A stretch of 28,358 nt of DNA, from NCBI GenBank assembly GCA_934317205.1, contig CAKREL010000019.1, positions 1-28,358 on the forward strand, read 5' to 3'. This document shows, one piece after another, positions 3,171-28,358 of this stretch. Both the position numbers and the translations under genes were made by a program. The stretch's first letter is position 1, and every line of letters begins with the position of its first letter. Source of the DNA: an uncultured Eubacterium sp. (GTDB lineage: Bacteria; Bacillota; Clostridia; Lachnospirales; Lachnospiraceae). The notes below the pieces were generated by a model, which saw only the letters and a list, made by a program, of their open reading frames with translations, made no database searches and was not told the origin of the DNA.

Positions 3171-5189
<2,019 letters not shown>

Positions 5190-6002: not shown

Positions 6003-6056
6003 TCCATCGGTAACAATTTTTATCTATACAGAGACAATATCAACCAGAAAATCATC

Positions 6057-6494: not shown

Positions 6495-6626
6495 GACAAA
6501 ACCTCCTCTTTTTAAGTTAGTATTGTCATTTCACTGCAAAATATTCCATTCCCACCTGTCAATATGTAATGTCCTGTTTTTCATTGCTCGCAAAATTCAA
6601 GCCATCTCATGTCTGATATACATATC

Positions 6627-9353: not shown

Positions 9354-11030
9354 CTACTGATAACTGATTTTTAACAATTCTTCCGGTGTGGTCACACCCT
9401 CTTTTACCAGATTCAGGCCACTTTCCTTTAACGTACGCATGTGCTGGTGTTCTTTCGCATATGCTGTGATTTCTTCTACTGTATTATGATTGATGATCAT
9501 ACGGCGGATTTCGTTATCAATTGAAACAATCTCATGCACCGCAATTCGTCCGCTGTAACCAGTGTGATTACAGTGCGCACATCCAACACCACGGCGCACT
9601 TTCTTGACATCTTCTCCAAGAAAAATCTGTTCTTCTTCGGTTGTCTCCATCTCCACACCGCATTTTGGACACACTTTACGCATCAGACGCTGTGCCACCA
9701 GTCCCACCAGCGAATTGGCCACCAGATATGTTTCCACTCCCATATCCTCCAGGCGGACAATACTGGAAACTGCATCATTGGTATGTAACGTACTCAACAC
9801 CACATGACCGGTGATTGCTGCACGGACGGAAGTACCTGCGGTCTCTCCATCTCGGGTCTCACCTACCATGATGATATCCGGATCCTGACGCATCAAAGCT
9901 CTCAGACCCACATCAAAGGTCAGCCCTGCTACTGGATTTACCTGTGTCTGATTGATTCCAGCCATATTTTTCTCCACCGGATCCTCGATGGTGGAAATAT
10001 TGACATTTCTGCCGGACAGATAATCCAGCACCATATATAACGTCGTGGATTTACCGCTTCCTGTCGGTCCGGTAATATAAATAATTCCGTTCGGACGGTT
10101 CAGCATCGGTGCAAACTGGTTATAGCTGTAATCATCCATACCAAAATGATCTGCATGATCCATATGAGTAGTCGCAGCCATGATTCTCAGTACTGCTTTT
10201 TCACCAAATACTGTCGGCAATACAGATACACGAATATTTACACTTCCACCCTCCAGATTGACACGGAAATGTCCATCCTGTGGAATTCGTTTTTCTGCAA
10301 TATCCAGATTTGATAAAATCTTAATACGTGCAATCAGCGGTGCATGGATATGTCTCTGGATTGTTACATATTCCATGATCACACCATCAATTCGCATTCG
10401 TACTTTCGTCTCTGCCTCAAAAGGCTCGATATGAATATCACTTGCTTCTGATTTAATTGCACGCTCGATCAGACTATTCAGCAGTCGAATGATCGGTGCT
10501 TCATCATCTCCGGCCCCCAAATCCTCAATGGCCAGTTCTTCCGCCTCCGGCATGGCAAAATCTACATTTGCCTGTGTCGCTGCTTTTCTGGCACTGACCT
10601 CTGCAAAATAATAAGAAACAGCTTTTCGGAGGGGTTCTTCCTCACTCAGATAAATCTGCAGCTGGCAGCCGGTCTGTTGCCGTACTTCCTCCAATGCAAA
10701 ATAGTTCAGCGGATCGTTGGTAACGATAGTCATATTGTGTCCCTGCACACTGAGCGGAAGAATCAGATTTTTCTCACACAGTTCGCGGTTTACCATACCA
10801 ACTGCCTGAAGCTCCACATTCTGCTGTGCCACATCTATAATTTCCAGATGCAGTCTGCTGGCCAACGCATCCAATACCTGTGTTTCCGAGACAAATCCCA
10901 GTTCCATCAGAATCTGACCTACTCGTTTGTCACGATGCTCCTTCTGCCATGCAAGTGCCTGCTGCATCTGCGCCTCTGTTACATATCCTTTTTCAACCAG
11001 AATATCTCCAATTCTCAGATTCGTATTCAC
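9354..11030 (-). CDS. pilB: Type IV pilus extension ATPase PilB (GspE family)
   Basis: A hexameric cytoplasmic ATPase that drives pilin polymerisation with PilC. Residues 5-65 form the N-terminal MshEN/T2SSE_N region (RIGDILVEKGYVTEAQMQQA), which in some homologues binds cyclic di-GMP. The C-terminal ATPase has SEASDIHIEPFE, Walker A GPTGSGKS at 321-328, Asp box (STIEDPVEKN), Walker B (RQDPDIIMVGETRD, about 381-394) and His box (TGHVVLSTLHTNDA). A tetracysteine zinc motif (C454, C457, C484, C487) is typical of PilB/GspE and absent from PilT. The start is GTG at 11030, ten bases after GGAG. An ATG out of frame just before it opens a three-codon ORF whose TGA overlaps the GTG. The gene follows pilO by 30 bp. 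Confidence 0.96.
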   Translation of the reverse strand: MNTNLRIGDILVEKGYVTEAQMQQALAWQKEHRDKRVGQILMELGFVSETQVLDALASRLHLEIIDVAQQNVELQAVGMVNRELCEKNLILPLSVQGHNMTIVTNDPLNYFALEEVRQQTGCQLQIYLSEEEPLRKAVSYYFAEVSARKAATQANVDFAMPEAEELAIEDLGAGDDEAPIIRLLNSLIERAIKSEASDIHIEPFEAETKVRMRIDGVIMEYVTIQRHIHAPLIARIKILSNLDIAEKRIPQDGHFRVNLEGGSVNIRVSVLPTVFGEKAVLRIMAATTHMDHADHFGMDDYSYNQFAPMLNRPNGIIYITGPTGSGKSTTLYMVLDYLSGRNVNISTIEDPVEKNMAGINQTQVNPVAGLTFDVGLRALMRQDPDIIMVGETRDGETAGTSVRAAITGHVVLSTLHTNDAVSSIVRLEDMGVETYLVANSLVGLVAQRLMRKVCPKCGVEMETTEEEQIFLGEDVKKVRRGVGCAHCNHTGYSGRIAVHEIVSIDNEIRRMIINHNTVEEITAYAKEHQHMRTLKESGLNLVKEGVTTPEELLKISYQ

Positions 11031-11060: not shown

Positions 11061-11771
11061 CTAATTTTCTCCACAGGTGTATATCGCTAATGTACAATTA
11101 CAGCTCATCTGAGAAACGGTCTGCAGACTGCTGTTTACATACTCATTTTCCTGCATGGAAAAAGATGTTACCTGAATCCCCGGATAATTATTGGCGATAT
11201 CATCTAAAAATGCCCGGATTTCCGTTTCATTTCCCTGAACTGTCACATCCACAGATGTAGTGTTGACATAAGCCGCCTGTGGCACAGTCCTCCCCTCTTC
11301 CTGCGCAGTTTCTGCACTGTCCGAAGTATCCTCTGCCTCTGTGCTTTCCACATCCGTTGTATCCGTTGTTGCCTCTGCATTATTCACTTCTGATAATACA
11401 TATGCAGACGGAATCCCCGGAGCTGTCCCGGTAATATTCAGATACACCGGGAACAGATTATGGTCTAGCACGATTCCCGTAACCAGTTCATCTACCTGTC
11501 GATTTTCCAGCAGATCATAATAGCCTTCTTTCGTAGCCTGCAACACTTCCTGCTGCTTTGCGATCTTCACATCAAAACTGCCTGTCCGATCCATTACATC
11601 CTGCATTTCCAGCTGTTCTGTTTCCAGCTCAGTCCGCTGATCGGCCAGATCCATATGCTTATCTATGGCTGGGAAAATCAGAAAACGGATCATAAAAAAT
11701 GCTACCAGCACACAGGCCAGAACTTTCAAAAGAAAAATATCCTTCGGTCTTAATTCCATACTGATTTTCAT
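11061..11771 (-). CDS. pilO: PilO-like type IV pilus assembly protein
   Basis: A bitopic inner-membrane protein of the PilO/GspM type, which pairs with PilN to link the cytoplasmic PilM ring to the pilus machinery. One membrane segment is at residues about 13-34 (LLKVLACVLVAFFMIRFLIF). A coiled-coil region follows (about 40-92, with QRTELETEQLEMQD), and then a ferredoxin-like C-terminal domain (VDVTVQGNETEIRAFLDDIA, VTSFSMQENEYVNSS). This order is the PilO pattern. Sequence similarity in PilO is weak in general, so position carries part of the call: the gene sits between pilMN and pilB. A Glu/Thr/Asp/Ala-rich acidic stretch (about residues 131-160) is inserted in the periplasm-equivalent domain and makes the protein somewhat longer than usual. 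The start overlaps the pilMN stop as TAATG. Confidence 0.82.
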   Translation of the reverse strand: MKISMELRPKDIFLLKVLACVLVAFFMIRFLIFPAIDKHMDLADQRTELETEQLEMQDVMDRTGSFDVKIAKQQEVLQATKEGYYDLLENRQVDELVTGIVLDHNLFPVYLNITGTAPGIPSAYVLSEVNNAEATTDTTDVESTEAEDTSDSAETAQEEGRTVPQAAYVNTTSVDVTVQGNETEIRAFLDDIANNYPGIQVTSFSMQENEYVNSSLQTVSQMSCNCTLAIYTCGEN

Positions 11772-13195
11772 TACTGCTCACCTCCGGCTTCTTCTGCTTT
11801 CAATACACAGGAAAGCATCAGGGAATACTCTCCGCCATCATAACTGTAACCACTGTAATTCACAGAATCAAACAATCCGGTATCATCCAGCTTTTGAATA
11901 TAATTCGGGATGTCAATAACTTTACGGCTCACTGCATGAAAAGTCAGCGTACCGGTCGACATATCCAGTGACTGTACACGCACAGACATATCATTACCGC
12001 CTACATCCACGATTTTTTCCAGCATTTCCTCTGTCAGATCCGGATATGTATCAAGATTCTGTTTCATCTGCGCTACCTGACTCAATTGTGTTGCCAGTTT
12101 TTCACTCTCTGTCTCTTTTGCAAGTGCTTTACTGTATTCTTCCTGTACTTGGGAATCATTGATCCAGTCCTCAATGGCAGCTGCCTTATGTTCTTCTGCC
12201 AGATTCCATACTGACAGCCCCGCGTATACCGCTGCACAAATTCCAAATATAATCACCGGATATATAATCTGCTTCGCAGTATTTTTTGTTTTCACCATTC
12301 CCTCTTCATGAGCGCGGCACCATACCTGATACAGATTAATCCCTTTCGTTTTTTCTTTCATCAGAGCACCGATACAGGCCAGCCAGTCCTCCGCATTTTC
12401 CGTTGCAGTAAAATTCAGGTCAATCTTCAACGGATGTGCTTCCAGCTGCATGTTATGAATCCCATCCACACTGACCTCAAAATCGTCAGGCTGGCAGCCG
12501 GCATAATAAACATCTGTGATTGGGACCTCAGACTTCGTTGTTGCATAAAACTGTAAAATACCGGAAATCAGGCGTACAATCTCTGTTCCAAAATCCAAAG
12601 TACCGCGTTCACTGAAAATCCGGCTCTTTGTAGAGTACAGATATATCCCTTCCCGATACAACAGACTTGTCACACTGTTTTCTTCAAAAAGCAGGTAAAT
12701 GGCTGTCTCACGGCTATGGCTTTTTTGATGCGCCATCACCCGCAGATATCCCTCGACATAGACGGTAATCTCACGGATTGGAAGTCCAATCTCGCGGCAG
12801 AATTCTACTACCTGTGTAATGATTGCATCATCGGCACTTCCACAGCAAAGGGTAACACCATTTTTTCGATCAGCCGAAATTACAGAATAATCCATAACGG
12901 AATCTCCTTCCGTCTCAGCCACAATGTTTTCTGCCATGCGGGTCAGTTCTTTTCCGGTTGCATATGGGATCTGTGTAATACGGCTGGAACTATAAGAAGA
13001 CGGAAACACCATTTTCACCGGTCCAGGATGATGCTTCTGTGCATATTCCCGAAGTGCTTCCTTCCAAAGCTCGATAACATTCCCGAATCCGTTGAGTGGA
13101 ATCCTCTCGACCTCCTGCACCTTTGGCGGCTTTCCGGCTTTTCCGGACGCAACAAGGATACACTCGTCCTGTATTACTATTACTGTATCACTCAT
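11771..13195 (-). CDS. PilM-PilN fusion protein (GspL-like architecture)
   Basis: A 474-residue protein that joins a cytoplasmic PilM-like actin-fold domain (about residues 1-280) to a PilN-like bitopic membrane protein. The junction is marked by GINLYQVW (285-292), which matches the N-terminal INLLP-type motif by which separate PilN proteins bind PilM. A membrane segment follows (about 311-331, IYPVIIFGICAAVYAGLSVW), then a coiled coil and a PilN-type C-terminal domain (GTLTFHAVSRKVIDIPNYIQ). The actin-like part keeps CCGSADDAIITQVVEFCREI and SRETAIYLLFEENS, but the first nucleotide-binding motif is degenerate (VIQDEC instead of a DIG-type motif). GspL of type II secretion has the same domain order. 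The start at 13195 follows GGAGG by ten bases. No separate pilM or pilN is present, which supports the fusion. Confidence 0.85.
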   Translation of the reverse strand: MSDTVIVIQDECILVASGKAGKPPKVQEVERIPLNGFGNVIELWKEALREYAQKHHPGPVKMVFPSSYSSSRITQIPYATGKELTRMAENIVAETEGDSVMDYSVISADRKNGVTLCCGSADDAIITQVVEFCREIGLPIREITVYVEGYLRVMAHQKSHSRETAIYLLFEENSVTSLLYREGIYLYSTKSRIFSERGTLDFGTEIVRLISGILQFYATTKSEVPITDVYYAGCQPDDFEVSVDGIHNMQLEAHPLKIDLNFTATENAEDWLACIGALMKEKTKGINLYQVWCRAHEEGMVKTKNTAKQIIYPVIIFGICAAVYAGLSVWNLAEEHKAAAIEDWINDSQVQEEYSKALAKETESEKLATQLSQVAQMKQNLDTYPDLTEEMLEKIVDVGGNDMSVRVQSLDMSTGTLTFHAVSRKVIDIPNYIQKLDDTGLFDSVNYSGYSYDGGEYSLMLSCVLKAEEAGGEQ

Positions 13196-14492: not shown

Positions 14493-15275
14493 CTATAATT
14501 TTCCTAGATACCATTTTACAATACGGTCTCCCACAAATGCAGAAACAGCCAGTCCCACAGCCAGGAACGGACCGAATGCAAAATGATCTTTCCTTTTCAA
14601 TTTTCCACTTAACAACATAAAAGCTCCATAACCGCCTCCGGTAAGAAGCCCGATAAACATGGCACATACGGTAGCTCCCGTTCCAAGGAACAGTCCCGAT
14701 GCGGCCATCAATTTAATATCTCCGCCCCCAAAAGCTCCCGGAATGATCAGCGCCAATATCAGCATTGGTACTGAAATCACCACAGCCCCCAACAGACGGC
14801 TTCCAATTCCATGCTCCGGAAACAGCCATACTGCACACACCGCCAAAACAAGGATCATTATGTGAAATCTATCATATATCATCTGTGTATCCTGATCAAT
14901 CAGGGCTACCACAAGCAATATTCCCAAATAAGCAAAAATCACTGCGCCTTTCAGGGAAATAATTCCCGAAAGTCCACAGCCAAAATATATTCCGCAGCCG
15001 ATAAATGCTGCGCCTCCGGCTACTTCCACCAGAAAATCTCTCCAGGGGATCTTCACCCCGCAGGTTCTGCACTTTCCACCAAGACAAAGATAACTGATAC
15101 ATGGAACCAACTCCAATCCTTTCAGTTCCCTGCCACAATTGGTACAATGGCTCCGCCCCTTAACAACACTTTCCTGACGGGGCATCCTGTCTATTACTAC
15201 ATTCAAAAAACTGAAGATACAAGCTCCAAAAAAGAACCGTATCACATATATTATCACTTCTACTACTGCTAACAT
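14493..15275 (-). CDS. pilD: Prepilin peptidase/N-methyltransferase PilD
   Basis: An integral membrane aspartic protease that cleaves prepilin leaders after the -1 glycine and methylates the new N-terminus. The N-terminal methyltransferase domain has FGACIFSFLNVVIDRMP and the four-cysteine zinc motif at C44, C47, C69 and C72. The two protease aspartates are present: one in ALIDQDTQMIYDRF (D127), the other in the GGGDIKL motif (D186). The length (260 residues) and about eight hydrophobic segments fit the full bifunctional form. GGAGAATAAA precedes the ATG at 15275, and the start lies 1 bp after the stop of the upstream pilin-like gene. Substrates in this locus are the two tandem pilins and at least two minor pilins. 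Confidence 0.95.
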   Translation of the reverse strand: MLAVVEVIIYVIRFFFGACIFSFLNVVIDRMPRQESVVKGRSHCTNCGRELKGLELVPCISYLCLGGKCRTCGVKIPWRDFLVEVAGGAAFIGCGIYFGCGLSGIISLKGAVIFAYLGILLVVALIDQDTQMIYDRFHIMILVLAVCAVWLFPEHGIGSRLLGAVVISVPMLILALIIPGAFGGGDIKLMAASGLFLGTGATVCAMFIGLLTGGGYGAFMLLSGKLKRKDHFAFGPFLAVGLAVSAFVGDRIVKWYLGKL

Positions 15276-15276
15276 T

Positions 15277-15723
15277 TTATTCTCCGGTATTGATCATGCT
15301 TTTTTCATGATACACAGTGTATCTGTCCTCTGCATCCGCATCATACCAGACCGTGTATTCACCTTCCCGATAAACAAATCGACAAACTGTATATCCGTCC
15401 TCTTCCACCTGAAGAATCCAAAAATCTCCAGGCACTTCACTTAACTGTAAAATTTCTTCATATAAACCATCTGCGATGCCTCCCTCCCGGGTGACATCGC
15501 AGAAAGCCTCATTTCTGCCATACTGCTGTGTTGCAATTACCTGGGCTGCCATTCGCACCGATCTGGCATTCCCCATAGCGACCTGGGAATCAGCCCGGTA
15601 CATTATCCGGAGCACCCCAGGAACTACTAACACAATCGCAAGCAGAATTATGATCAGAAGGTAAATAGCCAGCCTGATCCAGTTGTATTTAATTTTTATC
15701 TTCTTTGGAATCCTGACTGGCAT
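15277..15723 (-). CDS. Pilin-like membrane protein lacking a prepilin cleavage site
   Basis: A 148-residue protein with a basic N-terminus (RIPKKIKIKYNW), one membrane segment (AIYLLIIILLAIVLVVPGVL) and a small extracytoplasmic domain. It aligns with the tandem pilins next to it. The helix proline and the MAAQ motif are 23 residues apart in both, with matching R..V.MAAQ and YG. Further on, L.EV, E.G and the paired tyrosines (RFVYREGEYTVWYD against AVQYENQGKTCYYT) also correspond. In that alignment the -1 glycine is replaced by Tyr and the +5 glutamate by Leu, so PilD should not process it. It is therefore best read as a pilin paralogue that stays as a bitopic membrane protein. AGAGG lies seven bases before the start. 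It is between the pilins and pilD. Confidence 0.75.
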   Translation of the reverse strand: MPVRIPKKIKIKYNWIRLAIYLLIIILLAIVLVVPGVLRIMYRADSQVAMGNARSVRMAAQVIATQQYGRNEAFCDVTREGGIADGLYEEILQLSEVPGDFWILQVEEDGYTVCRFVYREGEYTVWYDADAEDRYTVYHEKSMINTGE

Positions 15724-16380: not shown

Positions 16381-16878
16381 CTATTGTATATTATAGGTTC
16401 CTTTTGATCCATATTTTAAAGTTGTTCCACTTCCTGTATGTTCTACTTCATAAATACATGTTTTTCCATCTGATTCATACTGAAGCATAACTACTTTTCC
16501 TGCATATACAGTTGCAGCTTTGATATGATCTGCCGAAACTTCTGCCAGTTCTGCCACATCCTCAACAGGAATTTTTACTTTTCCATTGCCAAACGAACCG
16601 ATACTGATAGCTTCGTATACATTTACAGTTGCTTCCTGTAAATCCAACTTTCCGTATTCCTCATCCACCAGCGTCTGTGCGGCCATCACACACTGTCGCG
16701 TCTCAGCCACAATTGTTTTCTCTTTGGCCTTATTAATATATCCTGTCAGTGTCGGAATCAGTAAAGCCGCCAGAATCGCAATAATCACCAGAACTACGAT
16801 CAGTTCTACTAAGGTGAATCCTCTCTTTTTGTTTTCCCTGAATTTTCTGTCTCTCAATTCAAATAATTTTGTAACCAT
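16381..16878 (-). CDS. Type IV pilin, major-type (first of tandem pair)
   Basis: A pilus subunit precursor of 165 residues. The start is placed at the ATG at 16878, not at the longer 16899, because GGGGAG is eight bases upstream and the resulting leader (MVTKLFELRDRKFRENKKRG) matches the other pilin residue for residue in length. Cleavage after G20 yields FTLVELIVVLVIIAILAALL with the +5 glutamate. The globular domain ends in GSKGTYNIQ and holds two cysteine-free halves typical of small Gram-positive pilins. Directly upstream is a long structured leader, placed as if to set expression of the pilin genes within the longer transcript. Confidence 0.93.
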   Translation of the reverse strand: MVTKLFELRDRKFRENKKRGFTLVELIVVLVIIAILAALLIPTLTGYINKAKEKTIVAETRQCVMAAQTLVDEEYGKLDLQEATVNVYEAISIGSFGNGKVKIPVEDVAELAEVSADHIKAATVYAGKVVMLQYESDGKTCIYEVEHTGSGTTLKYGSKGTYNIQ

Positions 16879-16907
16879 TTCTCTTTCTCCCCTTTGCATT
16901 CATGCTT

Positions 16908-17094: not shown

Positions 17095-17832
17095 TCAGTC
17101 CTCCATAGTAGTCACATTGTCGTTTCGTACAGGCATATGACGAAACTGAAGAATTTCCGTATCGGCAGCCACGGCCTGTGTGCGTTCCGGATCACTGTAC
17201 AACGTCACCGTTGCTGTAATCTGGTTTACTGCAGTTCCCGCATTGATTCCATCCGGAAAAGCCCAGGTCACTTCCAGATAGTTTCCCATATAGAAACCTT
17301 CGCCAAACACAGTGGACACCGCACGGGCGACCGGAACTCCATCTTCGCTGTAACGATATTTTCCATTATTGCAAAAATAATAACGCGTCAGCAACTGTCC
17401 GGCCGGTACCGCTTCAGCCATCCCGGAATTCTGACTTCCGATCTGCAACTTCGTTGCATCACAGCCATCGGCCGATATAAGCACTACGTACCCATCTTCA
17501 TTCATAAATTCTAATATATTTCCTGAATTTTTTCCAGTCATATCCGTAATTTTTTCTGATTTTTTGTCATTTTGTTCATAAATTTTAATGTATCCGTTTG
17601 CATCTGCAGTCAAACCACGCAATTCGGTCATAACTGTATCGAGAATTGACTGCGCAAACTGCATCTTCTGTTCACGGACAAAAATCTTTGCGGCCGAACT
17701 TAACGCTGATGCCGCCATCACCATCATAATGCTGATGAGCAATAACGTAACAATCGTTTCCACCAATGTCGTACCACTTCGTTCCTTCAGTTTCCGCTTC
17801 ATCTTTTTTACATAAAAACTCAGCTTTTTCAT
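17095..17832 (-). CDS. Type IV minor pilin (PilW/GspJ-like position)
   Basis: A 245-residue pilin-like protein. The 20-residue basic leader ends in KLKERSG, and cleavage after G20 gives TTLVETIVTLLLISIMMVMA with the +5 glutamate. The globular domain is larger than in the major pilins (about 190 residues), as in PilW/GspJ-type minor pilins. The assignment to that class is by size and position only. The ATG at 17832 follows GGAGG by nine bases and overlaps the previous gene's stop as ATGA. It is the last of three minor pilin genes after the giant adhesin gene, and the structured leader begins right after its stop codon. Confidence 0.88.
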   Translation of the reverse strand: MKKLSFYVKKMKRKLKERSGTTLVETIVTLLLISIMMVMAASALSSAAKIFVREQKMQFAQSILDTVMTELRGLTADANGYIKIYEQNDKKSEKITDMTGKNSGNILEFMNEDGYVVLISADGCDATKLQIGSQNSGMAEAVPAGQLLTRYYFCNNGKYRYSEDGVPVARAVSTVFGEGFYMGNYLEVTWAFPDGINAGTAVNQITATVTLYSDPERTQAVAADTEILQFRHMPVRNDNVTTMED

Positions 17833-18233
17833 TGCGTGGTACCTCCTGCTGCCTGAGTTTCTGATGTACCAGGCAGACCATAGGTATAAAAAGTAATGAT
17901 TTGATTTGCTCCTTTGGAATCGGTATAACTAACCTGTTTGGATGCCAGATTCAAATCTACGGAAAATACCTGATTTCCAATCCGGTCCATCTCCGGTGTG
18001 GTTGCCACAAACCGAAGCGTCTGATCACTTCCTGGGGTCTGTTCTGCCGATGCCAGATTCTTGATGATTTCTGCATTCTGTGCACGAATCTGCTTGTTTT
18101 GTTCCATCGAGGCATGACTATAAGAAATTGCCCCCTGCAGGATTCCAAAGAGAATCAGAAAAATGAACATACTTGCAACCACTTCCACCAGAGTTTCCCC
18201 TGATTTTTTCCTGATCTTATGTAACTTCATCAT
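17829..18233 (-). CDS. Type IV minor pilin (PilV/GspI-like position)
   Basis: A 134-residue pilin-like protein with a short 12-residue leader (MMKLHKIRKKSG). Cleavage after G12 gives ETLVEVVASMFIFLILFGIL, which keeps the +5 glutamate; the first mature residue is Glu instead of Phe or Met. The remaining domain is small and ends in a Gly/Thr-rich tail (AAGGTTQ). Small size and position between the other two minor pilins resemble PilV or GspI. GGAGG lies 12 bases before the first ATG. It overlaps both neighbours by ATGA (18230-18233 and 17829-17832), so the three minor pilins are translationally coupled. Confidence 0.87.
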   Translation of the reverse strand: MMKLHKIRKKSGETLVEVVASMFIFLILFGILQGAISYSHASMEQNKQIRAQNAEIIKNLASAEQTPGSDQTLRFVATTPEMDRIGNQVFSVDLNLASKQVSYTDSKGANQIITFYTYGLPGTSETQAAGGTTQ

Positions 18234-19063
18234 TCGCTATCTGTACCTCCTCCCTGCGTCGTATCCGCATGAACATTTTCATGAAATACACACGATGTTG
18301 TCTGCGGCAGGAATTCGTATTTGATTGCCTCGGATCCTTCTGGTGTATAAATCTCTCCGCTGGTATTATTTTTGTGCCACTTACTGCCATCCCAGACAAT
18401 GTCCACTCCATTATGAGAAAACTTTACCTCGTACTTTTCTTCCCGGCTGTACTCTGTTTTGCAGGTATAGGTAGTATCATCACAGGAAGCAGTCACCTCA
18501 ACGATCAGATTGTATTCACGCACCGTAGTATTTCGGATGCGGTCAATCTCTGTCTGATAATTTGTGCCCGCCGCTGCAATATCTAACTCACCGGTTTTCA
18601 CTGAATCCATTGTCTCTGCACTGTTCTTTTCTTTGGACAGTGTGATTCGGATATTTCCATATCCGGCAGGCAGGGATGCTGCCTCCGCCAGATTTTCAAG
18701 ATTCGTATCACTCACCAGAAAATTATATTTCGATGCATCCGGATAGTCCTCACTGTAATCTAGATACTGTGTGTCATCCAAAAATTTGTTTGCAAACGCA
18801 TAAAATGTCTGATTCTGTGAACCGTCACTGCTTCTGTTATCATATTTCAGTAACTCTTCATTTAATACCTGCGCGGCAGAAGTCGCCAGCTGATTGCACC
18901 GTTCTTCCTTCAGGCGCAGATTTGACTGCGCCGTCAGAAGTCCGGCCGTATAAAGGATTGCAGCGGCAAAGGCTACAAAAAATGCTGATACACAGATCAC
19001 AACAACCATCGATATCCCGTTTTTCTTATTTTGCCGAAGCTGCTGCCAGCCTTTCCATTCCAT
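18230..19063 (-). CDS. Minor pilin without +5 glutamate (PilX/GspK-like)
   Basis: A 277-residue pilin-like protein. An ATG at 19105 overlaps the stop of the giant gene (TAATG), but the ATG at 19063 has GGAGG eight bases upstream and is chosen. The leader MEWKGWQQLRQNKKNG ends in Gly, and cleavage there gives ISMVVVICVSAFFVAFAAAI, with Val instead of Glu at position 5. In type II secretion GspK, and in PilX-type proteins, loss of the +5 glutamate marks the subunit that caps the tip of the pilus. The large globular domain (about 230 residues) contains NYQTEIDRIRNTTVREYNLI and ends NVHADTTQGGGTDSE. The position directly after the giant protein gene suggests that the two products interact. Confidence 0.82.
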   Translation of the reverse strand: MEWKGWQQLRQNKKNGISMVVVICVSAFFVAFAAAILYTAGLLTAQSNLRLKEERCNQLATSAAQVLNEELLKYDNRSSDGSQNQTFYAFANKFLDDTQYLDYSEDYPDASKYNFLVSDTNLENLAEAASLPAGYGNIRITLSKEKNSAETMDSVKTGELDIAAAGTNYQTEIDRIRNTTVREYNLIVEVTASCDDTTYTCKTEYSREEKYEVKFSHNGVDIVWDGSKWHKNNTSGEIYTPEGSEAIKYEFLPQTTSCVFHENVHADTTQGGGTDSE

Positions 19064-19104
19064 AAATAGTTCCTCCGGTCTGCACCATTTTTGTGCTGAT
19101 TCCA

Positions 19105-22100
19105 TTAATTATTCCAGCTGATCTCATATGTGTCTGATGCAGCATAAGCATCACTTACTGTCACAGTCAGATTTTTCTGTACATCTGCCTGGAAAGATGC
19201 TTTCTGAGTCACCGCAAAGTTTGCATGTGTCACACTGCTTCCATCCACTGCTGTCAATTTTTCCACATCCGGCAATTTCAGTACATAATGAAGTGTTCCA
19301 TCACCCTGAAGCTGAACTGTCAGCTGTGCAGTCAGCGTTAATGTATAATAATAAGTTGCTCCGCTGTCTGCCTTATAATTGGACGATACGGCCACACTGT
19401 AAGCATTCAGATCATACGTGTGCACTTTTGCCGTTTCCGGCGTTCCACTTGGGTAGGTCTCCGTATTTTTCGATACTGTCTCCCAGATGTACTGCCACTT
19501 TTCTGCCGTCTGGTCTGTCTGGTCCTGAATTTTGCGATATACATACTGCTGTACTTCCGCCGTTTTATTTCCGGCCGCATCTGTTTTTTCCAAAATACGA
19601 AGCTGACCATTCAGTGCTCTCGTTCCGGTTGCAGATGCCGGATCTGTCATCTGTCCTGTCAGATCCACGCTGTACATATCTGCACAATCTACGCTGTCCC
19701 AGGAAAGAGCCGTATGTAGTGCTGTCCAGTTCTGCACACTGCCCGATACGTTCGGCGTTGTCTGGACGGTCGCCGCAACAGTATCCCTCAGGCTGTCTGA
19801 GGTAACCACCGGCTGTGCCAATTTCACATATGGAAGCTGATATACATCCGGGGATCTGGTCCACAACGAACTTACACTTCCGGCGCCGGATGATATTCTG
19901 GCGTAAAATACAACCCATTTTCCAGCGTATTGGATGGACAGATCAGTTACTATATGATAATAAGTCTGTGCGTTTGATACATCCATTTGTACTGGTACAT
20001 CACCAGCCGGATAAACAGCCATATAGGCGCCAGGGTCTGAACTTGTCGCTTTTGCCGCTTCTCCTGCACTGTTATATACATACGCACGCAGCAGGTATGC
20101 ACTTCCTCCCGGCGGAATGCTTGCACGATCCGCTGACAGCCCAACTCTCAGACCACCTGACAGAAAACTTGCCGCTTCCATCGGATTTGCTTTGTCAAAA
20201 GCCCAGTTTACGTTCCATGATACATTTGGCTGTGCAATACGCGACGGAACCTGAAGTTCACAGGAAACTCCCGCCGCACTGTTTATGAATATATTTGCAT
20301 TACTGGATTGTGCAACCACATACACAGTAATTCTCTCACCTGCATATTTTTCCAGATTTACAATCTGAGAATAGGTTGCTGCACCTGTTGCTTTCTGCAC
20401 AGAGCCAACTTTTTCTGCAATTCCAAGATTTCCGGATGTATCATACGCACGTACATAAATCTGATAACCGGCACAATAATCCTCATTTGGAATACATGGC
20501 CAGATTACTTTATAATTCAACTCATTATGATCCACATTCGTCACAGAAGCCTGTCCCGGTTTTTCCAGTCTCTGTGCCACTGAATAAGTCGCAGTTGAGG
20601 AAAGTCCGATCTGCTTTTTCGATGCATCACCGATTCGGGTAACTTTCAGGCGAACCCGCGTATAATTCCAGTCCTCTCCGTTAATGGTAAAGGTTCTGCC
20701 ACCAGTGTAATCACCAGTATCTATTGTAACTTCCTTGCCATCTGCATCAATACCGGTCAAAACGATCTCATACGTCGGATTTTCTTTATCCGATATATCT
20801 TTGTCCCAGGAGAATATATATTGCATCTGATTCTCACTGTCATAAGACGGTGTCAGACTGCTTCCATCTGCCTGATCCATCTCTGGAGCGGGCAGCCAGT
20901 CAAATAACTTACCGGAAACTGTCTGGTATGGCTTAAAATCCTGCCAGTTATTTCGAACTGCCACACTGTAACTATATCCCCACTGCTCCGTACCATCCGC
21001 ATTGAATCCTTTCAGCTCTGTAACTGCACCACTCTTTGGCTTACTGTCTGTATCATGATACAGATATACCGGTCCAAGGCCAGTCTGCGCATACCACAAT
21101 CTGACATGCAGATTCTGCGCCTTTCCAAGATATTCCGGTAAATTTGTAAAATGAGCAGTAACACTTCCGCTGGATACCGTCATCATATCTGTCTTTGCAA
21201 ATACAATATCTTGATGAACAGTTCCTTTGGCATCGGTCCAGTCGCCAAGCAATTCTGCGCGGTAAATCGGATTTACTTCCAGTATCTCTGCATTTTTTGT
21301 ATCATCAATTGTCACATCCACACTGAGTGTATCCAGTGTATTTCCTGAGATTGAATAACTTGTCTTTGCTATATGGCTCAGATTATCAGTGCTCCATTTA
21401 TATGGAGTATCCAGACCAATGAATGCCTGGAACAATGGCATATATGCAGATGTTGAAATTACAGGTGAATCCTCATAATCTGTATTACCATGCAAAGCCT
21501 GTGCAATCATCTGATAAGTATTATCTTTCTTATTCTTTTTACTATCAAAATTTATTGGCAGAATACCTGCTGGATTATCAGCACTTAATACCACATTTTT
21601 ATCTTTTCCATAAGCATTTAGATAAATATTCACTTTCCAGCCAGAATATTGTTCATACTCCTCAAGATTGTTCAAACTCACTTGATAATAGTAAAAAACC
21701 TTTTCTCCATTAAGCATATAGCCATCCGGTACCATTACAAGTTCTGCCCGGACTTCCGGGCTTGGAAGAATAGCCCCACTCTGGATAACACTGGCTTCTG
21801 TTGGCACTGATTTTTCCACATCCTCGAACATGCTGACCGACTGAACTGAAATATTCAATTTTCCTGATAATCCTGAAGGAATATCAAAACTTTCGTTTTC
21901 TGTGTAGATCATTTGGGTTGCACTCTGTCCATTGCTGCCCGTAATGCTCACCAGATATGCAAACGGATCACATTTCGTCGCAGGATCTGCTGGCAGATTA
22001 CCCGGTGTCACAGAAATACTGATCTTACCATCTGCCACAGTCGCTTTTGCAGAAACAGGAGCCAAAAGCTGTTTCTGACTGTCTGTCAGCAAAATACCTT

Positions 22101-25100
22101 CCAGGCGTCGATAACTTTCACGAGACTGATTATAAATCTCATCGTTCTCAAGATCTGGATTTTCTGTACATTTTTTGTACACATTATCATTCCAATGATG
22201 GTCCTCATTTCCTGTATAAAACAAAATCTGACCAATTCTTGTTGTTTTGTCCGCAGCTACAATATATCCATCAGAATCAACGAAACAATCGCTTCCAATA
22301 GTATCAATGCCGCTATAAATCTCTGCAAAGGCATATTTATAGCTACTTTCTGTTCTTTCAACCGCTACCGAATGGATATTGCTAATATAATCACCCCAAT
22401 GTACATTGCCTCTCCGGGTGACAGGAACATTCACTTCTCCACTTCCACGACTGATGACATTCCCATTTTCATCCAATTTTCCAAGGACAAATTTATTATA
22501 ATAAAATCCGGCATCAGATCCATATCTCTGAGGACCAAGTCCATCAATAAAGAAATTATTTTTTCGGTTATTGCTGTCTTGTATATTTCCGGCTGTTCCT
22601 CCCTGATTATTTCCGGTTGAATAAATTGGGCTATTCGTCGGTTTATACCCATATACATTTACTGAATAGCAGTCATTTACAATTGTATTACTCCATCCAC
22701 GCTCAGTATAACGTGCACCAATAATTCCGCCAGAAAACCGGCTTCCCTGTAACTTTTCAGCAAAATTCCTGCAGCGCTCCACCTGAAGTTTTACGCGCTG
22801 AGTAGATGTTACCACTTCAGATCCATTACTGCTTGTCGGTACATTGTCACAGGAAAGGAATCCAAAAATACCGGAAGCCATGGATGAAGAATAAATTTCT
22901 ACATCAGGGCCATTTACACAATCCAGAATGCGAATCGTAAATTCCTGTCCTTTATCCGCATCATTTACTTTATAGGTAGTAACATTACCAAGAATACCAG
23001 CACTGTCATTTGCTCCGTAAGAACCAGATGACAGGCTGGCTCCTTTTCTCATATACAGATTACCATGATTTTCGCAACCGATGATATTGTAATCATTATC
23101 TTCATATGCATAATACAACTGTGCAACAATTCCACCAGACGCTCCACTCCAGCCAAGCTGCAGTGAAGTCTGAAGATTACCATAATTCCTACAATCCGAA
23201 ATCGTACCACCAGCTGCTGTCCACTGTCCTATAATTCCTCCGGAATAATGAGAACGATAACAATAAACGGTACCAAAATTAATACATTTTTCAAGTGTCC
23301 AGTCATTTCCGGTAGAAGTATTCTGATTTCCAATGATTCCGCCTGCGAAACGGTTTGTCTGACCATCTTCGCCTGCTTTTTTTGAAGTGCCGGCAGACAC
23401 CTGGCGTCCGACAAAAGCCCCATTGACCAGACAAGCTAAGCTTTTCTCTGACTCATTCATACCGATCACACCACCGGTACCAACACCAACTGCTTCTGAA
23501 CGATTCAAGATAAACCAGTTACCTGAAACGCATCCATTTAACACACCGTCTGTACTGTTAAAGGCCGTAATGCCTCCGATACTGCCGTTTGCCGTCATTT
23601 TCAAGTTCATACGGTCTTGTGAAATCGTCGTTTTTGAATTATGATAAACAGAATTTTCGATTTCATAATGCGAGTTTCCGTCTACCCATTCTACCGGTTT
23701 CGTATCCGGTGACAGATTTCCTTTCTGTACATCATGCGCTGCATTTACCAAGGCTGACACATCTGCCATTGTCTCCGCTGTCATGATCAATGATGTCTTG
23801 TTGCTTCCGGACATCCGGATCGTTCCTTTGTTAAATCCAGTCACGCCGCCAAGCATACCATATTTAGCCTGCAGTACACTCTTGCTATTATCCGCAAGCA
23901 TACAACTGTCAATCAACGCATTTGTCTCATTTTTACCAACAATTCCACCTGCATGGCTCGCCATTGCTTCTTTCTGTGCTGTAGTACTTGTACTGGTAGC
24001 CGTATAGATACCTTGAATATCCATACGGATCTGAGTAACCACGTTATGACTTAATTCCGCATAGTTGATGCCCGCAATGCCACCATAGCAATTTCCGGCT
24101 GCACCGGCATTTACTTTTTCTGCTATCGTTCCATTAAAGCTGCAGTCTGTAACCTTCACCTGATAATCAGTATCTGCATTCAAACGGATAGATGTTCCAT
24201 TGCTGCCAACAATTCCTCCCAGATACTGATAACCGCTGAAGTTATCAAACGTCAAATTGCTTGCGACAATACCTGACACAACACCTGCATTAGAACCAAC
24301 TGCGCCGCCAACGGTCAGATTCCCCTTGTTTGCTTTAATCTGTGGCATATATTTCAGATCAAATGCACTGGTTCCGGTGGCAGTAGCTGCCGTAGATGTA
24401 ACCATGCCGGTATTTTCCCCCGCAATTCCACCAAATACAGTTGCATTACCGCATAATACTACCGAATTTCCCGGAATGCTGTCTGTAATCATTCCGCTGT
24501 TCGTCGCAACAATGGCTCCGCTGGCATTTACATCCAGACTATAAATTTCCACATTATCGTAAATGCTGTTTCCATTGACTCTGCAATACTCGATCCTGCC
24601 AGCGTTTGTTGCCGCAATTCCTCCAGCATAACCGTCACTGCTTCTGACATTTCCGTAGTTATTGCAGTTTTGGATAACAGCCTTTGGATTCGTCGTTTCT
24701 GCCACGATTCCGCCTGCATTTCCCGCATCGGCACTGACATTGTCGCAACGGTTCACCGCATACTGAATCGTTCCATCCGTCACGCCGGCGATTCCACCGA
24801 CGGTTCCATGGGAAGCCTGTACCCTTCTCGCCTTCGCAGTAATATATAATCTATTATCCGTGGAGCGTTTGATCTGCCCATGATTGATACCGACAATTCC
24901 ACCGACTTTCTCGTAGCCTTGCACTGTCACTTTATCTGAAACAACTACAATTTCACTATTTCCATCAGCATTTCCACTAACTAGAATACTTCCACCAGTC
25001 TCATTAATACCAACAGCACCGCCGACACCGGCTCCTCTCATACCGGAAACCAAATGACCAGATGAACTGTCATCTTTTGAAAGCTGGATTTCACCACTGT

Positions 25101-28100
25101 TTTGCCCGGCAAGTCCACCAACTGATGCAAATCCGGTTTCATCCGCTCCAGAAGCATTTACAGTGGCATTATTTGTATTTTCAAAAAGAATACCGCCCTG
25201 CAGGTTCCATCCAGCGATTCCGCCAAGATGATCCCTTCCTGCAATTGTTTTACCTGATGCAGTTGTACAAAACATTACAGTTCCGCCATTGCTGTTGATA
25301 CCAACAATTCCACCCACATATTCCAGTGCTGCATTTCCAAAATGTTCACTAAGTTCACATTTTGTCACAGTTCCTGCATTCAGGCCAACCACACCGCCAC
25401 TTCCGGTAAACCCAGAAAGTGATCCGGTATTGGTACAATGTGTAATCGTTTCATTTTCCAGTGCAACACCTGTAATACCACCGATAAAATGCAGTTTCAG
25501 GTTCTTGGCATCTTCTGAAAGGAGTTTCGGTATCTCGCCACTGGCTCCATATGTTCCCAGTTTCACTGCTCCATCAGATACATCTGTCTTTCCTGACAGT
25601 TCCGATGCAAATGTAATATTTCCCACATTTTTACAGTTCTTAATCTGGATTTTACTGTTCTTTTCACAGTAACCCAGCACACCACCGGAATACATGACTG
25701 TCTGAATCGGAATATTATTTGTATTTATCTTTAAATCACTGGCGGTATTTCCATTTGTTGAAATCGTCAGCGTATATGGATTTGCAGATTCCATGACCGC
25801 TGTCGGTACATTCGTCGCCGAATAAAGTTCTGGCAGTATCTGTGCCACATTTAATTCTACAGATGTACGGATTCCCTCATCATTTTCTACATCAGCGGTC
25901 GGAATCTGACTTTCTGTATAAGTTCTCTGATAACCAATAATTCCACCGCAGAAAGCTTCTCCGGTAATCGTTCCGAGCATATTATCCGCACGCAGAGCTG
26001 ATATCTCTGTATCTTCCCTGATATTCAGTACATTTGCACCAATCACTCCACCAACAAAGTATCGTCCCTGCACACTTTGTGGTTTTACTGTCAATGTCTG
26101 CTGTGCTGAATCCACAGAAGCATTAAATCCAAATGCACCTCCCGCACATTTTTCATAGGCATAAATCTGGCCTCCGATGAGCGTATAATTTACATCAAGT
26201 GTAGCTTTCACATCATTGAACCCGGCTATCCCTCCAACATAGTTGTTCCCAACTACAATACTGGATACTGACTTCACCATGATGGCCTGACTCTCATCCG
26301 AAAACTCGATCTCACCATTATTATATCCGACAATTCCTCCAACATAGTCGCTTCGGGCATCCCAGGTATTGACGACCATATCAAAAATAGAATTGCCATA
26401 ATCAGACAGATAACTTGCGCAGTCACTGATTCTCGCACCGTTGGCATTATATCCAACGATACCACCAACATAACGTCCGCCCTCTCCATTTTCTTTTTTA
26501 GTCCCAGCTACTACGCCATTGTTGATACAATTAGATAAAACAACATCTTTTGTATTATAACCGACAATTCCACCCACATATTCATTTCCAATAACATAGC
26601 TCCGGTTTGTTGTAACAGAGACGCTCTCATGCAGCTGAGCCTGGATTGCATCACTGATATTTCCACCAAGCCCGCCTGCAATTCCACCGACATATTTAGC
26701 GCCAAGAATATAACCATTGCTTTCCGTTCCGCAGTTTGCTATCAAACTGTGATTGCCATAGCCGACAATGCCACCCACGTACTGGCCTTTCAACAACGCT
26801 TTCTTATTTTTATTATAGGAAAAACTGGAAGACCGTCCGGATGCACTGGTAGAATTATAAACCAATGTTCGATATGCATATCCAACAATTCCGCCAAAAT
26901 AATTTCCATTGACAGAATCTGTTGCCGCTGATGTACAAAGAATCAGTCCTGTATTTGAACTGTCTTTGATTGCCGCCTCAGATTCCCATTTTTTTTGATC
27001 AAATGTGTCTGCAGTTCCGTCAATCATGCCAACAATTCCACCGGTCATATAATTGCCGGATACCCCGGCATGATTCCGGCAGGAAAGAAGTACACTTTTC
27101 TCTTCTTTGCTCTCCAGTTTCGCATATCCTGCGATTCCGCCGATTCCTAAGGCATAGTTTTCACAATCACCTGTATTGGCTGCCCCACTCATAGTAGGAA
27201 GATGCGCTTCCACTGCCCCTTCCATCGTTACATCTTCTATTTTTCCGGTTGTTGATGCAGTCAGATTTCCATCCTTGTCCGTATCTGCCAGAATACCAAC
27301 GACTCCACCCACTGCTGCAATCTGTGTATTTCCATTTGCAGACAGCACTGCCGATTCAAGTGAAACATTTACTGTCTTTGCATTCTGCACTGAGTTATTA
27401 TCTGCCACAGACGTAATCTCTGTATGTTTGATCACGCCCGCACTGCGTCCTGCAAGGATACCAATGCCTTTCAACTGCGTGTAAGTATGTACTTCATTTT
27501 CCTGTCCAGTTGACACACCAAATGTAATACTTGGTTCGCGCAGCACAAAATCTGTAACCGTTCCTTCCAGCTCTCCAAACAGACCCAGATATTCTGTCTT
27601 TTTTAGATTAGAAGCAGCAGAGGCATCAGCCAGCTGCTGTACCGTCTCATCATCCACAATGGACGTTTCACCCAAACGCAGATTGGACACATATGTTTTC
27701 TTACCATGTCCCTGCAGCGTATGCTTTTTTGGAAGTACTGCAATGGTTGGAAAATCTGCTGCCTCATCCGCAGAGTTTTCTTTCCACGCCAGCTTTTCCA
27801 CGGTTGCCCCCGCTGTCTCCTGCTCATCTGCAGTCAGATCATACACACCGGTTCCCACAGAAGTCCAGTCCATATTTTTATTTGTCAGCTCGAAATCTGC
27901 ATCAATATCTGCATCATAATAACGCATATTGGAGAGATGACGAAATGCTGCTATTTTCACTTTATTTCCATTGGTTTTATCCGCAAACATCGTGTTTGCA
28001 TCATTGGATGTTACAGATTGACTGGAACGATACTCTCTCGTGACTGAATTACTGCTGTCTGTTCCCGCATAAGAAATTGCCTTCACCGTCGCATAAATAT

Positions 28101-28358
28101 CCTGCGGTTTTTTCAGATCCTGTGTTTCTGTCAGATCTGCTCCATTTACTGAAGCCAGACGACAGATGCTTGTGCTCATCGTCCGCTGTAATGCATTGTA
28201 ATCATCTGTACCTTCTCTTGATTCCAGTAAAGCCTGTACTTTTGCTGACATCATTGCATCTAATACAAGTGTGTATTTATTATCTTGATAGGTCAATGGA
28301 AAACTCCACTGTCCCCTCTCCTTATCTTCACTGTCCTGCAGCGTCACATTTGCAAAAG
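19105..28358 (-). CDS. Giant GLUG-repeat surface protein, candidate pilus adhesin (N-terminus outside window)
   Basis: An open frame of at least 3083 codons with no stop, which runs off the window end; the apparent GTG start at 28347 is not a real start, since the frame continues upstream. After about 250 residues without repeats come about 37 glycine-rich GG[IVLA]xG motifs (residues about 255-1915), typically YVGGIVGYN followed by a short turn and a Cys/Asn-rich strand. These match the GLUG motif of bacterial adhesins and probably form a beta-solenoid. From about residue 2090 on there are several fibronectin III-like beta domains (for example PAPEMDQADGSSL, RIAQPNVSWNVNW). The C-terminus (DAYAASDTYEISWNN) has no LPXTG motif, charged tail or membrane segment. 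The gene stands at the head of the T4P locus and its TAA overlaps an ATG of the next reading frame. It may be exported as a pilus-tip or pilus-associated adhesin; that is inference. Confidence 0.82.
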   Translation of the reverse strand, partial: FANVTLQDSEDKERGQWSFPLTYQDNKYTLVLDAMMSAKVQALLESREGTDDYNALQRTMSTSICRLASVNGADLTETQDLKKPQDIYATVKAISYAGTDSSNSVTREYRSSQSVTSNDANTMFADKTNGNKVKIAAFRHLSNMRYYDADIDADFELTNKNMDWTSVGTGVYDLTADEQETAGATVEKLAWKENSADEAADFPTIAVLPKKHTLQGHGKKTYVSNLRLGETSIVDDETVQQLADASAASNLKKTEYLGLFGELEGTVTDFVLREPSITFGVSTGQENEVHTYTQLKGIGILAGRSAGVIKHTEITSVADNNSVQNAKTVNVSLESAVLSANGNTQIAAVGGVVGILADTDKDGNLTASTTGKIEDVTMEGAVEAHLPTMSGAANTGDCENYALGIGGIAGYAKLESKEEKSVLLSCRNHAGVSGNYMTGGIVGMIDGTADTFDQKKWESEAAIKDSSNTGLILCTSAATDSVNGNYFGGIVGYAYRTLVYNSTSASGRSSSFSYNKNKKALLKGQYVGGIVGYGNHSLIANCGTESNGYILGAKYVGGIAGGLGGNISDAIQAQLHESVSVTTNRSYVIGNEYVGGIVGYNTKDVVLSNCINNGVVAGTKKENGEGGRYVGGIVGYNANGARISDCASYLSDYGNSIFDMVVNTWDARSDYVGGIVGYNNGEIEFSDESQAIMVKSVSSIVVGNNYVGGIAGFNDVKATLDVNYTLIGGQIYAYEKCAGGAFGFNASVDSAQQTLTVKPQSVQGRYFVGGVIGANVLNIREDTEISALRADNMLGTITGEAFCGGIIGYQRTYTESQIPTADVENDEGIRTSVELNVAQILPELYSATNVPTAVMESANPYTLTISTNGNTASDLKINTNNIPIQTVMYSGGVLGYCEKNSKIQIKNCKNVGNITFASELSGKTDVSDGAVKLGTYGASGEIPKLLSEDAKNLKLHFIGGITGVALENETITHCTNTGSLSGFTGSGGVVGLNAGTVTKCELSEHFGNAALEYVGGIVGINSNGGTVMFCTTASGKTIAGRDHLGGIAGWNLQGGILFENTNNATVNASGADETGFASVGGLAGQNSGEIQLSKDDSSSGHLVSGMRGAGVGGAVGINETGGSILVSGNADGNSEIVVVSDKVTVQGYEKVGGIVGINHGQIKRSTDNRLYITAKARRVQASHGTVGGIAGVTDGTIQYAVNRCDNVSADAGNAGGIVAETTNPKAVIQNCNNYGNVRSSDGYAGGIAATNAGRIEYCRVNGNSIYDNVEIYSLDVNASGAIVATNSGMITDSIPGNSVVLCGNATVFGGIAGENTGMVTSTAATATGTSAFDLKYMPQIKANKGNLTVGGAVGSNAGVVSGIVASNLTFDNFSGYQYLGGIVGSNGTSIRLNADTDYQVKVTDCSFNGTIAEKVNAGAAGNCYGGIAGINYAELSHNVVTQIRMDIQGIYTATSTSTTAQKEAMASHAGGIVGKNETNALIDSCMLADNSKSVLQAKYGMLGGVTGFNKGTIRMSGSNKTSLIMTAETMADVSALVNAAHDVQKGNLSPDTKPVEWVDGNSHYEIENSVYHNSKTTISQDRMNLKMTANGSIGGITAFNSTDGVLNGCVSGNWFILNRSEAVGVGTGGVIGMNESEKSLACLVNGAFVGRQVSAGTSKKAGEDGQTNRFAGGIIGNQNTSTGNDWTLEKCINFGTVYCYRSHYSGGIIGQWTAAGGTISDCRNYGNLQTSLQLGWSGASGGIVAQLYYAYEDNDYNIIGCENHGNLYMRKGASLSSGSYGANDSAGILGNVTTYKVNDADKGQEFTIRILDCVNGPDVEIYSSSMASGIFGFLSCDNVPTSSNGSEVVTSTQRVKLQVERCRNFAEKLQGSRFSGGIIGARYTERGWSNTIVNDCYSVNVYGYKPTNSPIYSTGNNQGGTAGNIQDSNNRKNNFFIDGLGPQRYGSDAGFYYNKFVLGKLDENGNVISRGSGEVNVPVTRRGNVHWGDYISNIHSVAVERTESSYKYAFAEIYSGIDTIGSDCFVDSDGYIVAADKTTRIGQILFYTGNEDHHWNDNVYKKCTENPDLENDEIYNQSRESYRRLEGILLTDSQKQLLAPVSAKATVADGKISISVTPGNLPADPATKCDPFAYLVSITGSNGQSATQMIYTENESFDIPSGLSGKLNISVQSVSMFEDVEKSVPTEASVIQSGAILPSPEVRAELVMVPDGYMLNGEKVFYYYQVSLNNLEEYEQYSGWKVNIYLNAYGKDKNVVLSADNPAGILPINFDSKKNKKDNTYQMIAQALHGNTDYEDSPVISTSAYMPLFQAFIGLDTPYKWSTDNLSHIAKTSYSISGNTLDTLSVDVTIDDTKNAEILEVNPIYRAELLGDWTDAKGTVHQDIVFAKTDMMTVSSGSVTAHFTNLPEYLGKAQNLHVRLWYAQTGLGPVYLYHDTDSKPKSGAVTELKGFNADGTEQWGYSYSVAVRNNWQDFKPYQTVSGKLFDWLPAPEMDQADGSSLTPSYDSENQMQYIFSWDKDISDKENPTYEIVLTGIDADGKEVTIDTGDYTGGRTFTINGEDWNYTRVRLKVTRIGDASKKQIGLSSTATYSVAQRLEKPGQASVTNVDHNELNYKVIWPCIPNEDYCAGYQIYVRAYDTSGNLGIAEKVGSVQKATGAATYSQIVNLEKYAGERITVYVVAQSSNANIFINSAAGVSCELQVPSRIAQPNVSWNVNWAFDKANPMEAASFLSGGLRVGLSADRASIPPGGSAYLLRAYVYNSAGEAAKATSSDPGAYMAVYPAGDVPVQMDVSNAQTYYHIVTDLSIQYAGKWVVFYARISSGAGSVSSLWTRSPDVYQLPYVKLAQPVVTSDSLRDTVAATVQTTPNVSGSVQNWTALHTALSWDSVDCADMYSVDLTGQMTDPASATGTRALNGQLRILEKTDAAGNKTAEVQQYVYRKIQDQTDQTAEKWQYIWETVSKNTETYPSGTPETAKVHTYDLNAYSVAVSSNYKADSGATYYYTLTLTAQLTVQLQGDGTLHYVLKLPDVEKLTAVDGSSVTHANFAVTQKASFQADVQKNLTVTVSDAYAASDTYEISWNN
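22587..27590 (-). repeat. GLUG-type protein repeat region
   Basis: About 5 kb of coding sequence encodes about 37 (counted by eye) GG-x-x-G units spaced mostly 35-70 residues apart. Strong copies read YVGGIVGYN, VGGIVGIN, LGGIAGWN and FVGGVIGAN. On the plus strand they appear as repeated CCACC and CCGCC-containing boxes of the form ACAATTCCACC. Units are divergent in DNA, so the array is old and unlikely to recombine easily. Confidence 0.8.

What the first reader, a model, noticed from the sequence alone, without database searches (positions are those of the whole stretch)
19105..28358. Giant GLUG-repeat protein at the head of a type IV pilus operon
A protein of more than 3080 residues, with about 37 GG[IV]xG units and C-terminal Fn3-like domains, sits directly upstream of three coupled minor pilin genes. 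Gram-negative T4P carry the PilY1 tip adhesin in the matching position beside minor pilins, and no PilY1 relative is present here. The giant protein may be an unrelated, Gram-positive counterpart: a tip adhesin carried by the minor-pilin complex. The sequence directly shows the repeats, gene order and coupling. The tip location is inference.
Basis: partly seen in the sequence, partly recalled or inferred. Interest (0 to 1): 0.8.

Follow-up and report, generated by a model that had tools for sequence, protein, structure and literature searches.

The report
Giant modular type IV pilins
The giant repeat protein appears to be itself an enormous pilus subunit, one of a family of roughly 1,500 to 7,700-residue pilins in gut and related bacteria, built as a normal pilin carrying a very long arm that probably helps the pilus stick to things.

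Summary
In detail: a 3083-codon ORF, open at the window edge, lies directly upstream of three coupled minor pilin genes. The strict GG[IV]xG count is 28, not about 37. The 95%-identical relative P0002 (3366 aa, ~358 kDa) and 51 of 51 further giants checked begin with a type IV prepilin leader with Glu5 (mostly G|FTxxE). So it is not a PilY1-like non-pilin but a giant modular pilin: pilin module, ~1,600-residue GLUG region (predicted beta-helix, closest to IgA1 proteases but without HExxH), then FnIII-like domains. At least 37 of 397 sampled genomes of the E. ramulus genome's family carry such prepilins (1,464-7,664 aa). 45 of 51 have another prepilin gene within 4 kb. Two genomes hold an ordinary 189/191-aa pilin with the same module in the same slot. 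All 16 family-sample genomes with the closest PilT carry a giant, but 182 of 216 PilT-positive genomes showed none. Best reading: a minor pilin displayed by the pilus, probably at its tip, as a long adhesive arm. Tip location and adhesion are inference. It is a new, extreme variant of the known modular pilins.

The parts
19105..28356 (-). Giant modular prepilin, 3083 codons in the window; the N-terminal ~283 residues (leader, helix and the whole ~200-residue pilin module) lie beyond the window edge
   Evidence: N-terminus read by homology from P0002 (95% identical over 3083 residues)
22567..27309 (-). GLUG-repeat region (P0001 residues ~350-1930), predicted beta-helix
19108..22107 (-). C-terminal array of FnIII-like domains (P0001 residues ~2084-3083)
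   Evidence: AF2 model and PDB matches
18230..19105 (-). K-like minor pilin, prepilin-type leader without Glu5 (NG|ISMVV)
   Evidence: no Glu5 in 7 of 7 aligned sequences; first start shares a base with the giant's stop; no Pfam pilin hit
17829..18233 (-). I-like minor pilin (SG|ETLVE)
   Evidence: PF07963 just over cut-off
17095..17832 (-). J-like minor pilin (SG|TTLVE)
   Evidence: PF07963 below cut-off
16381..16899 (-). Major-type pilin 1
   Evidence: PF07963
15745..16248 (-). Major-type pilin 2
   Evidence: PF07963
15277..15723 (-). Conserved membrane ORF with a pilin-like stretch, no Pfam or NCBIfam hit
   Evidence: relatives in many T4P loci
14493..15275 (-). PilD prepilin peptidase
   Evidence: PF06750 and PF01478
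13280..14473 (-). PilC platform protein
   Evidence: PF00482
11771..13195 (-). PilM-like (possibly PilM-PilN) protein
   Evidence: position; PilN hit below cut-off
11061..11771 (-). PilN/PilO-like protein
   Evidence: T2SSM_b hit below cut-off, position
9354..11030 (-). PilB extension ATPase
   Evidence: PF00437, PF05157
8249..9319 (-). PilT-type ATPase
   Evidence: PF00437; used for the co-occurrence test

Best explanation
A giant modular minor pilin of a monoderm T4aP-like pilus. Shown by sequence in relatives: a prepilin leader with Glu5, a hydrophobic pilin helix and a conserved pilin module, then a GLUG region and further domains, in one ORF at the minor-pilin slot beside K-, I- and J-like prepilins. 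Predicted: the GLUG region is a beta-helix and the distal ~1,000 residues are FnIII-like. Inferred: PilD cleaves the leader; the pilin module joins the K/I/J-like minor pilins (perhaps as the H-type member, with the Glu5-less K-like subunit as cap); and tip-first assembly carries the ~350 kDa arm out through the wall as a long adhesive fibre that PilT can pull on. It would do PilY1's job by fusion to a pilin rather than as a separate protein.
For: Leaders with Glu5 in 51 of 51 giants, in 119 of 120 listed close relatives (P0003's listed start lies inside the module) and in 95 of 96 proteins of a second search from another branch, which partly overlaps the 51. Shared pilin module, A6, 38 rows; AF2 helix 11-65 plus head strands. 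Beta-helix and FnIII folds. Slot: 45 of 51 with another E/D5 prepilin gene within 4 kb on the same strand, against 3 of 100 ORFs more than 6 kb away; 42 of 51 with Pil machinery in the fetched stretch. Ordinary 189/191-aa pilins with the same module stand before K- and I-like genes in G640 and G578. K-like lacks Glu5 in 7 of 7. Giants against PilT: 34 of 216 versus 3 of 181, p=4e-7; 16 of 16 in the closest PilT group. F5/8 type C in 8 and CBM_2 in 2 of the 96 second-search proteins (precomputed), confirmed in one each.
Against: No experiment. The window's own N-terminus is off-window and no genome is held for it. The N-terminal model has modest confidence (mean pLDDT 63.7, 7 sequences). No binding domain is recognised in the window's protein itself. 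Giants are not universal with these pili: 182 of 216 PilT-positive genomes showed none (an undercount, since G191's giant was missed there and found). 6 of 51 giants lack a clear E/D5 prepilin neighbour (L097, L110, L112, L120, L163, L164; L120's next gene is a second giant prepilin, L112 ends at the contig). L096, L102 and L104 follow their minor pilins rather than head the operon. Three of 37 giant-bearing genomes gave no PilT hit at the cut-off (G375, which has other Pil genes beside the giant, G231, G362).
Confidence: 0.7

Rival explanations
1. Membrane-held surface adhesin: the prepilin-type helix only anchors the giant in the membrane, it is not polymerised, and its arm reaches through the wall.
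For: The arm would be long enough by rough geometry (recalled values). Nothing here shows incorporation, and 6 of 51 loci lack a clear neighbouring prepilin.
Against: Glu5 in 51 of 51, shared pilin module, the slot beside K/I/J-like prepilins, and an ordinary pilin in its place in G578/G640.
Confidence: 0.17
2. Modular pilin placed along the shaft or near the base rather than at the tip.
For: It has Glu5, so another subunit could sit above it. [quoted passage not shown]
Against: It sits in a set with K/I/J-like minor pilins, whose counterparts are placed at tips in S. sanguinis (modelled) and M. xanthus (cryo-ET) according to PMC9934059 (passages).
Confidence: 0.1
3. PilY1-like non-pilin tip adhesin docked on the minor pilins.
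For: Gene order beside minor pilins; PF05567 not found in 9 of 9 genomes.
Against: Relatives are themselves prepilins; no PF05567 match in the window part.
Confidence: 0.02
4. Pilus-borne M26-type protease, as Raynaud 2021 suggests for pilins with IPR011493.
For: The repeat region matches IgA1 proteases in fold.
Against: HExxH in 0 of 51 giants, 0 of 120 close relatives and not in P0001, and in 0 of 96 of the second branch.
Confidence: 0.01

Closest known systems
Modular type IV pilins: S. sanguinis PilB (vWA) and PilC (lectin), PMC8179133 and PMC9934059 (passages read)
   Same: Prepilin leader and pilin module with a non-T4P domain at the C-terminus, alongside other minor pilins in a monoderm T4aP locus; proposed tip adhesins
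   Different: Processed PilB is 50.5 kDa; here ~358 kDa, with relatives up to 7,664 aa. The most extreme multi-domain case that paper names is 860 residues with 12 repeat copies. GLUG region plus FnIII-like array instead of a single domain; K/I/J-like partners also present
PilC/PilY1 tip adhesin of diderms
   Same: Large effector encoded with minor pilins (recalled); probably the same job
   Different: PilY1 is a non-pilin with a propeller domain; the relatives here have a prepilin leader, and no propeller was found
M26 IgA1 proteases and GLUG proteins (M26 label recalled)
   Different: No HExxH, prepilin leader, pilus locus
Kil/TadG Tip minor pilins (PMC12075869, passages read)
   Same: Large minor pilins with variable C-terminal domains at the tip
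   Different: Tad system of a predatory diderm; different domains as described there
Tapirins (cellulose adhesins of Caldicellulosiruptor; T4P linkage and fold recalled, papers seen only as a listing)
   Same: The NCBIfam tapirin model matches the two major pilins of the window far below its cut-off, at its N-terminus
   Different: No match listed for the giant P0004; much smaller

Membership tests
Modular type IV pilin | N-terminal class III prepilin leader (PF07963/IPR012902) | tested here: met
   In relatives: Glu5 leader in 51 of 51 giants; PF07963 above cut-off in P0004, P0009 and P0085, but below cut-off or absent in several distant giants (L113, L114, L120, L129). The window's own N-terminus is off-window and read only by homology to P0002
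Modular type IV pilin | Pilin module: long alpha1 helix plus head | tested here: met
   In relatives: AF2 helix 11-65 and head strands (modest pLDDT); the same module stands alone as 189/191-aa pilins; profile A6 matches solved pilins, best 8pfb PilE1, mostly through the helix
[quoted passage not shown]
   GLUG region and FnIII-like array
Modular type IV pilin | Processed by PilD and incorporated in filaments | not testable with these tools
   pilD lies in the same gene cluster; needs experiment
H-type member of an HIJK-like minor pilin complex | Occupies the fourth minor-pilin place beside K, I and J | tested here: inconclusive
   Gene slot fits; the GspH model hit is far below cut-off; no co-folding possible
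PilC/PilY1 | PF05567 propeller | tested here: not met
   No match in the window part; 0 of 9 genomes of relatives; one of six other genomes rang above cut-off
PilC/PilY1 | Not a pilin | tested here: not met
   Relatives have the prepilin leader
M26 IgA1 protease | HExxH metalloprotease motif (recalled as its catalytic motif) | tested here: not met
   0 of 51 giants, 0 of 120 close relatives, not in P0001; 0 of 96
Sortase-anchored (LPXTG) adhesin | C-terminal sorting signal | tested here: not met
   None in the last 80 residues of P0001, P0002 or the other sequences (51 in all; L112 and L133 are cut before their C-terminus; L161-L166 not included)

The most novel reading that the evidence does not exclude
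Clostridia of the gut build type IV pili whose tip complex contains a single giant pilin with an arm of tens of nanometres or more. One minor-pilin slot has been extended from ~190 to more than 7,000 residues with interchangeable repeat and carbohydrate-binding modules. This is a pilin-borne tip fibre that replaces PilY1 and that retraction pulls on.
Probability: 0.5. Interest if true: 0.82.

Novelty: new variant of a known kind. Interest (0 to 1): 0.7.

Why it matters
Which component makes type IV pili of monoderms sticky is described as unknown in PMC6916266 (passages), and PMC9934059 states that PilY1 is absent in monoderms. This names a concrete candidate in human gut species (E. ramulus, Coprococcus comes) with testable predictions. 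It also shows that prepilin surveys with a length limit would miss these proteins: PilFind keeps only proteins under 350 aa (PMC3244431, passages). A pilin of 350 kDa and more raises the question of how the machinery assembles such a subunit and moves it through the wall.

Full report
Observation. The minus-strand frame 19105-28356 is open for 3083 codons and runs off the window. Its stop shares one base with the next ORF's first ATG (TAATG), and the three following ORFs overlap by 4 bases from one to the next. In six relatives the distance from giant to next ORF is -13 to +82. Downstream come two major-type pilins, a conserved small membrane ORF, PilD, PilC, PilM- and PilN/O-like proteins, PilB and PilT.

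The missing N-terminus. A search with residues 1-360 gave 600 proteins at E<=0.001, the best 120 listed. The nearest, P0002 (3366 aa, 95% identical to the window over 3083 aligned residues), starts MKRTWKKG|FTLTELIVVLVIM; the calculated mature mass is 358 kDa. P0002 carries no source name; it may represent the cluster holding the window's own protein, which is inference. Of the 120 listed, 119 have a leader with Glu5; P0003's listed start lies inside the module. PF07963 is above its cut-off in the three scanned, P0004, P0009 and P0085. The window residues begin at position 284 of P0002, so the whole pilin module is off-window.

Slot and relatives. One genome-contig scan returned 56 loci; the strong ones are E. 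ramulus, Coprococcus comes, Hominisplanchenecus faecis, bacterium D16-56, a Dorea MAG and other MAGs. In L001-L005 and L008 the giant (3270-3593 aa) is followed directly by a K-like prepilin without Glu5, an I-like and a J-like minor pilin and pilus machinery (L003's contig ends after PilC); L006 has the same layout with the giant broken into two frames. In several, PilT lies directly upstream.

Distribution. One (G137) has no prepilin leader, leaving 37. This is a lower bound: the list was cut, and G191's 1,893-aa giant was missed there. The largest frame is 7,664 aa (G190, whose second giant is 3,515 aa as listed, 3,497 from its first start); G195 has two in tandem (3,222 and 3,167 aa as listed). 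In a class sample of 391 genomes, profile A6 found giants of 1,893-3,752 aa in six genomes not examined before, G191 among them; most other matches there are ordinary pilins. In a phylum sample of 398, 11 genomes matched at E<=1e-14 and one (G977, 2182 aa) was a new full-module giant. A second protein search from another branch gave 96 proteins of 2302-4292 aa; 95 have the leader with Glu5, and P0166 begins inside it. This set includes the query's own cluster and may overlap other sampled genomes. Some are already named 'prepilin-type N-terminal cleavage/methylation domain-containing protein' in databases, so the sequences are public.

Counts. 51 giants were examined in 50 genomes (G190 twice; G009 and G010 look like one species; L106 dropped beforehand; L006 and L007 left out). 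All 51 have Glu at +5 (44 begin FT, 4 FS, 2 YT, 1 VS). 45 have another E/D5 prepilin gene within 4 kb on the same strand, against 3 of 100 ORFs more than 6 kb away; 42 have PilB, PilC, PilD, PilM or PilT in the fetched stretch; some stretches end at contig edges. PilT (E<=1e-80) is in 216 of the 397 genomes. Giants occur in 34 of these 216 and in 3 of the other 181 (p=4e-7), so 182 PilT-positive genomes showed none. The 16 genomes with PilT closest to the window's (467 bits or more; the next is 390) all carry a giant, against 18 of the other 200 PilT-positive genomes (genomes matched by eye between the lists). The genomes are related, so these p-values overstate independence.

One slot, many sizes. 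The giants share a ~200-residue pilin module (A6, 38 rows). Profile A6 also finds 189- and 191-aa ordinary pilins in G640 and G578, followed by K- and I-like minor pilins (J-like too in G578; the G640 contig is short), and 483-675 aa forms in G464, G693, G780 and G218. On a tree of 56 modules the six small forms need 3 changes, at least 2 forced by well-supported branches; some branches are long. So the arm was probably gained or lost more than once.

Mechanism. Shown: sequence anatomy and gene order. Inferred: PilD cleavage, assembly with K/I/J-like minor pilins, tip display, adhesion, retraction load. The inference uses the S. sanguinis PilABC model and the diderm HIJK-PilY1 tip (PMC9934059, PMC10191384; passages read): a subunit without Glu5 caps or starts the complex, and PilY1 is stated to be absent in monoderms. 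PF05567 was not found in 9 of 9 giant-bearing genomes, with one of six other genomes ringing above its cut-off.

Known or new. Modular pilins are known (PMC8179133, passages): more than 1,200 proteins and 264 architectures. That paper mentions IPR012902-IPR011493 and reads the second part as an M26-family peptidase. From recall IPR011493 is the GLUG entry, so the pairing itself is in print; the giants here lack HExxH. The paper names an 860-residue protein with 12 repeat copies as the most extreme multi-domain case; its dataset was not read, so longer ones may be listed there. What appears new is the size class, the recurring slot with interchangeable arms, and its frequency in this family. 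No paper on this was listed in the searches.

Noticed in passing
window 15277-15723 (-): Conserved 148-aa membrane ORF between the major pilins and PilD with a pilin-like stretch (RADSQVAMGNARSVRMA) but no Pfam or NCBIfam hit; relatives recur in many T4P loci. Possibly an undescribed pilus component.
   Followed up: partly
L133, L134, L113 (G190): One genome holds a 7,664-aa and a ~3,500-aa prepilin, each preceded by PilB, PilT and a pilin; the larger is followed by a 2,563-aa protein without a detected prepilin leader.
   Followed up: partly
L120-L121 (G195): Two giant prepilins in tandem (3,222 and 3,167 aa as listed) before a K-like gene and other Pil genes.
   Followed up: partly
L167 (G491) 4676-6499 and 11260-13077: 605-607 aa proteins without a detected leader match the giant-pilin module profile at their C-terminus.
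   Followed up: no
L109 (G131): A 1,692-aa prepilin whose helix resembles the major pilin sits before the 2,296-aa giant.
   Followed up: no
L006 10001-20132; P0085: The giant is split into two frames in one MAG, and a 2,352-aa shorter form of the E. ramulus type exists; assembly error or strain variation not decided.
   Followed up: no
P0128-P0133, P0135, P0148 and P0165, P0172: Giant prepilins with precomputed F5/8 type C (8) or cellulose-binding CBM_2 (2) domains; confirmed inside the arm of P0129 and P0172.
   Followed up: partly
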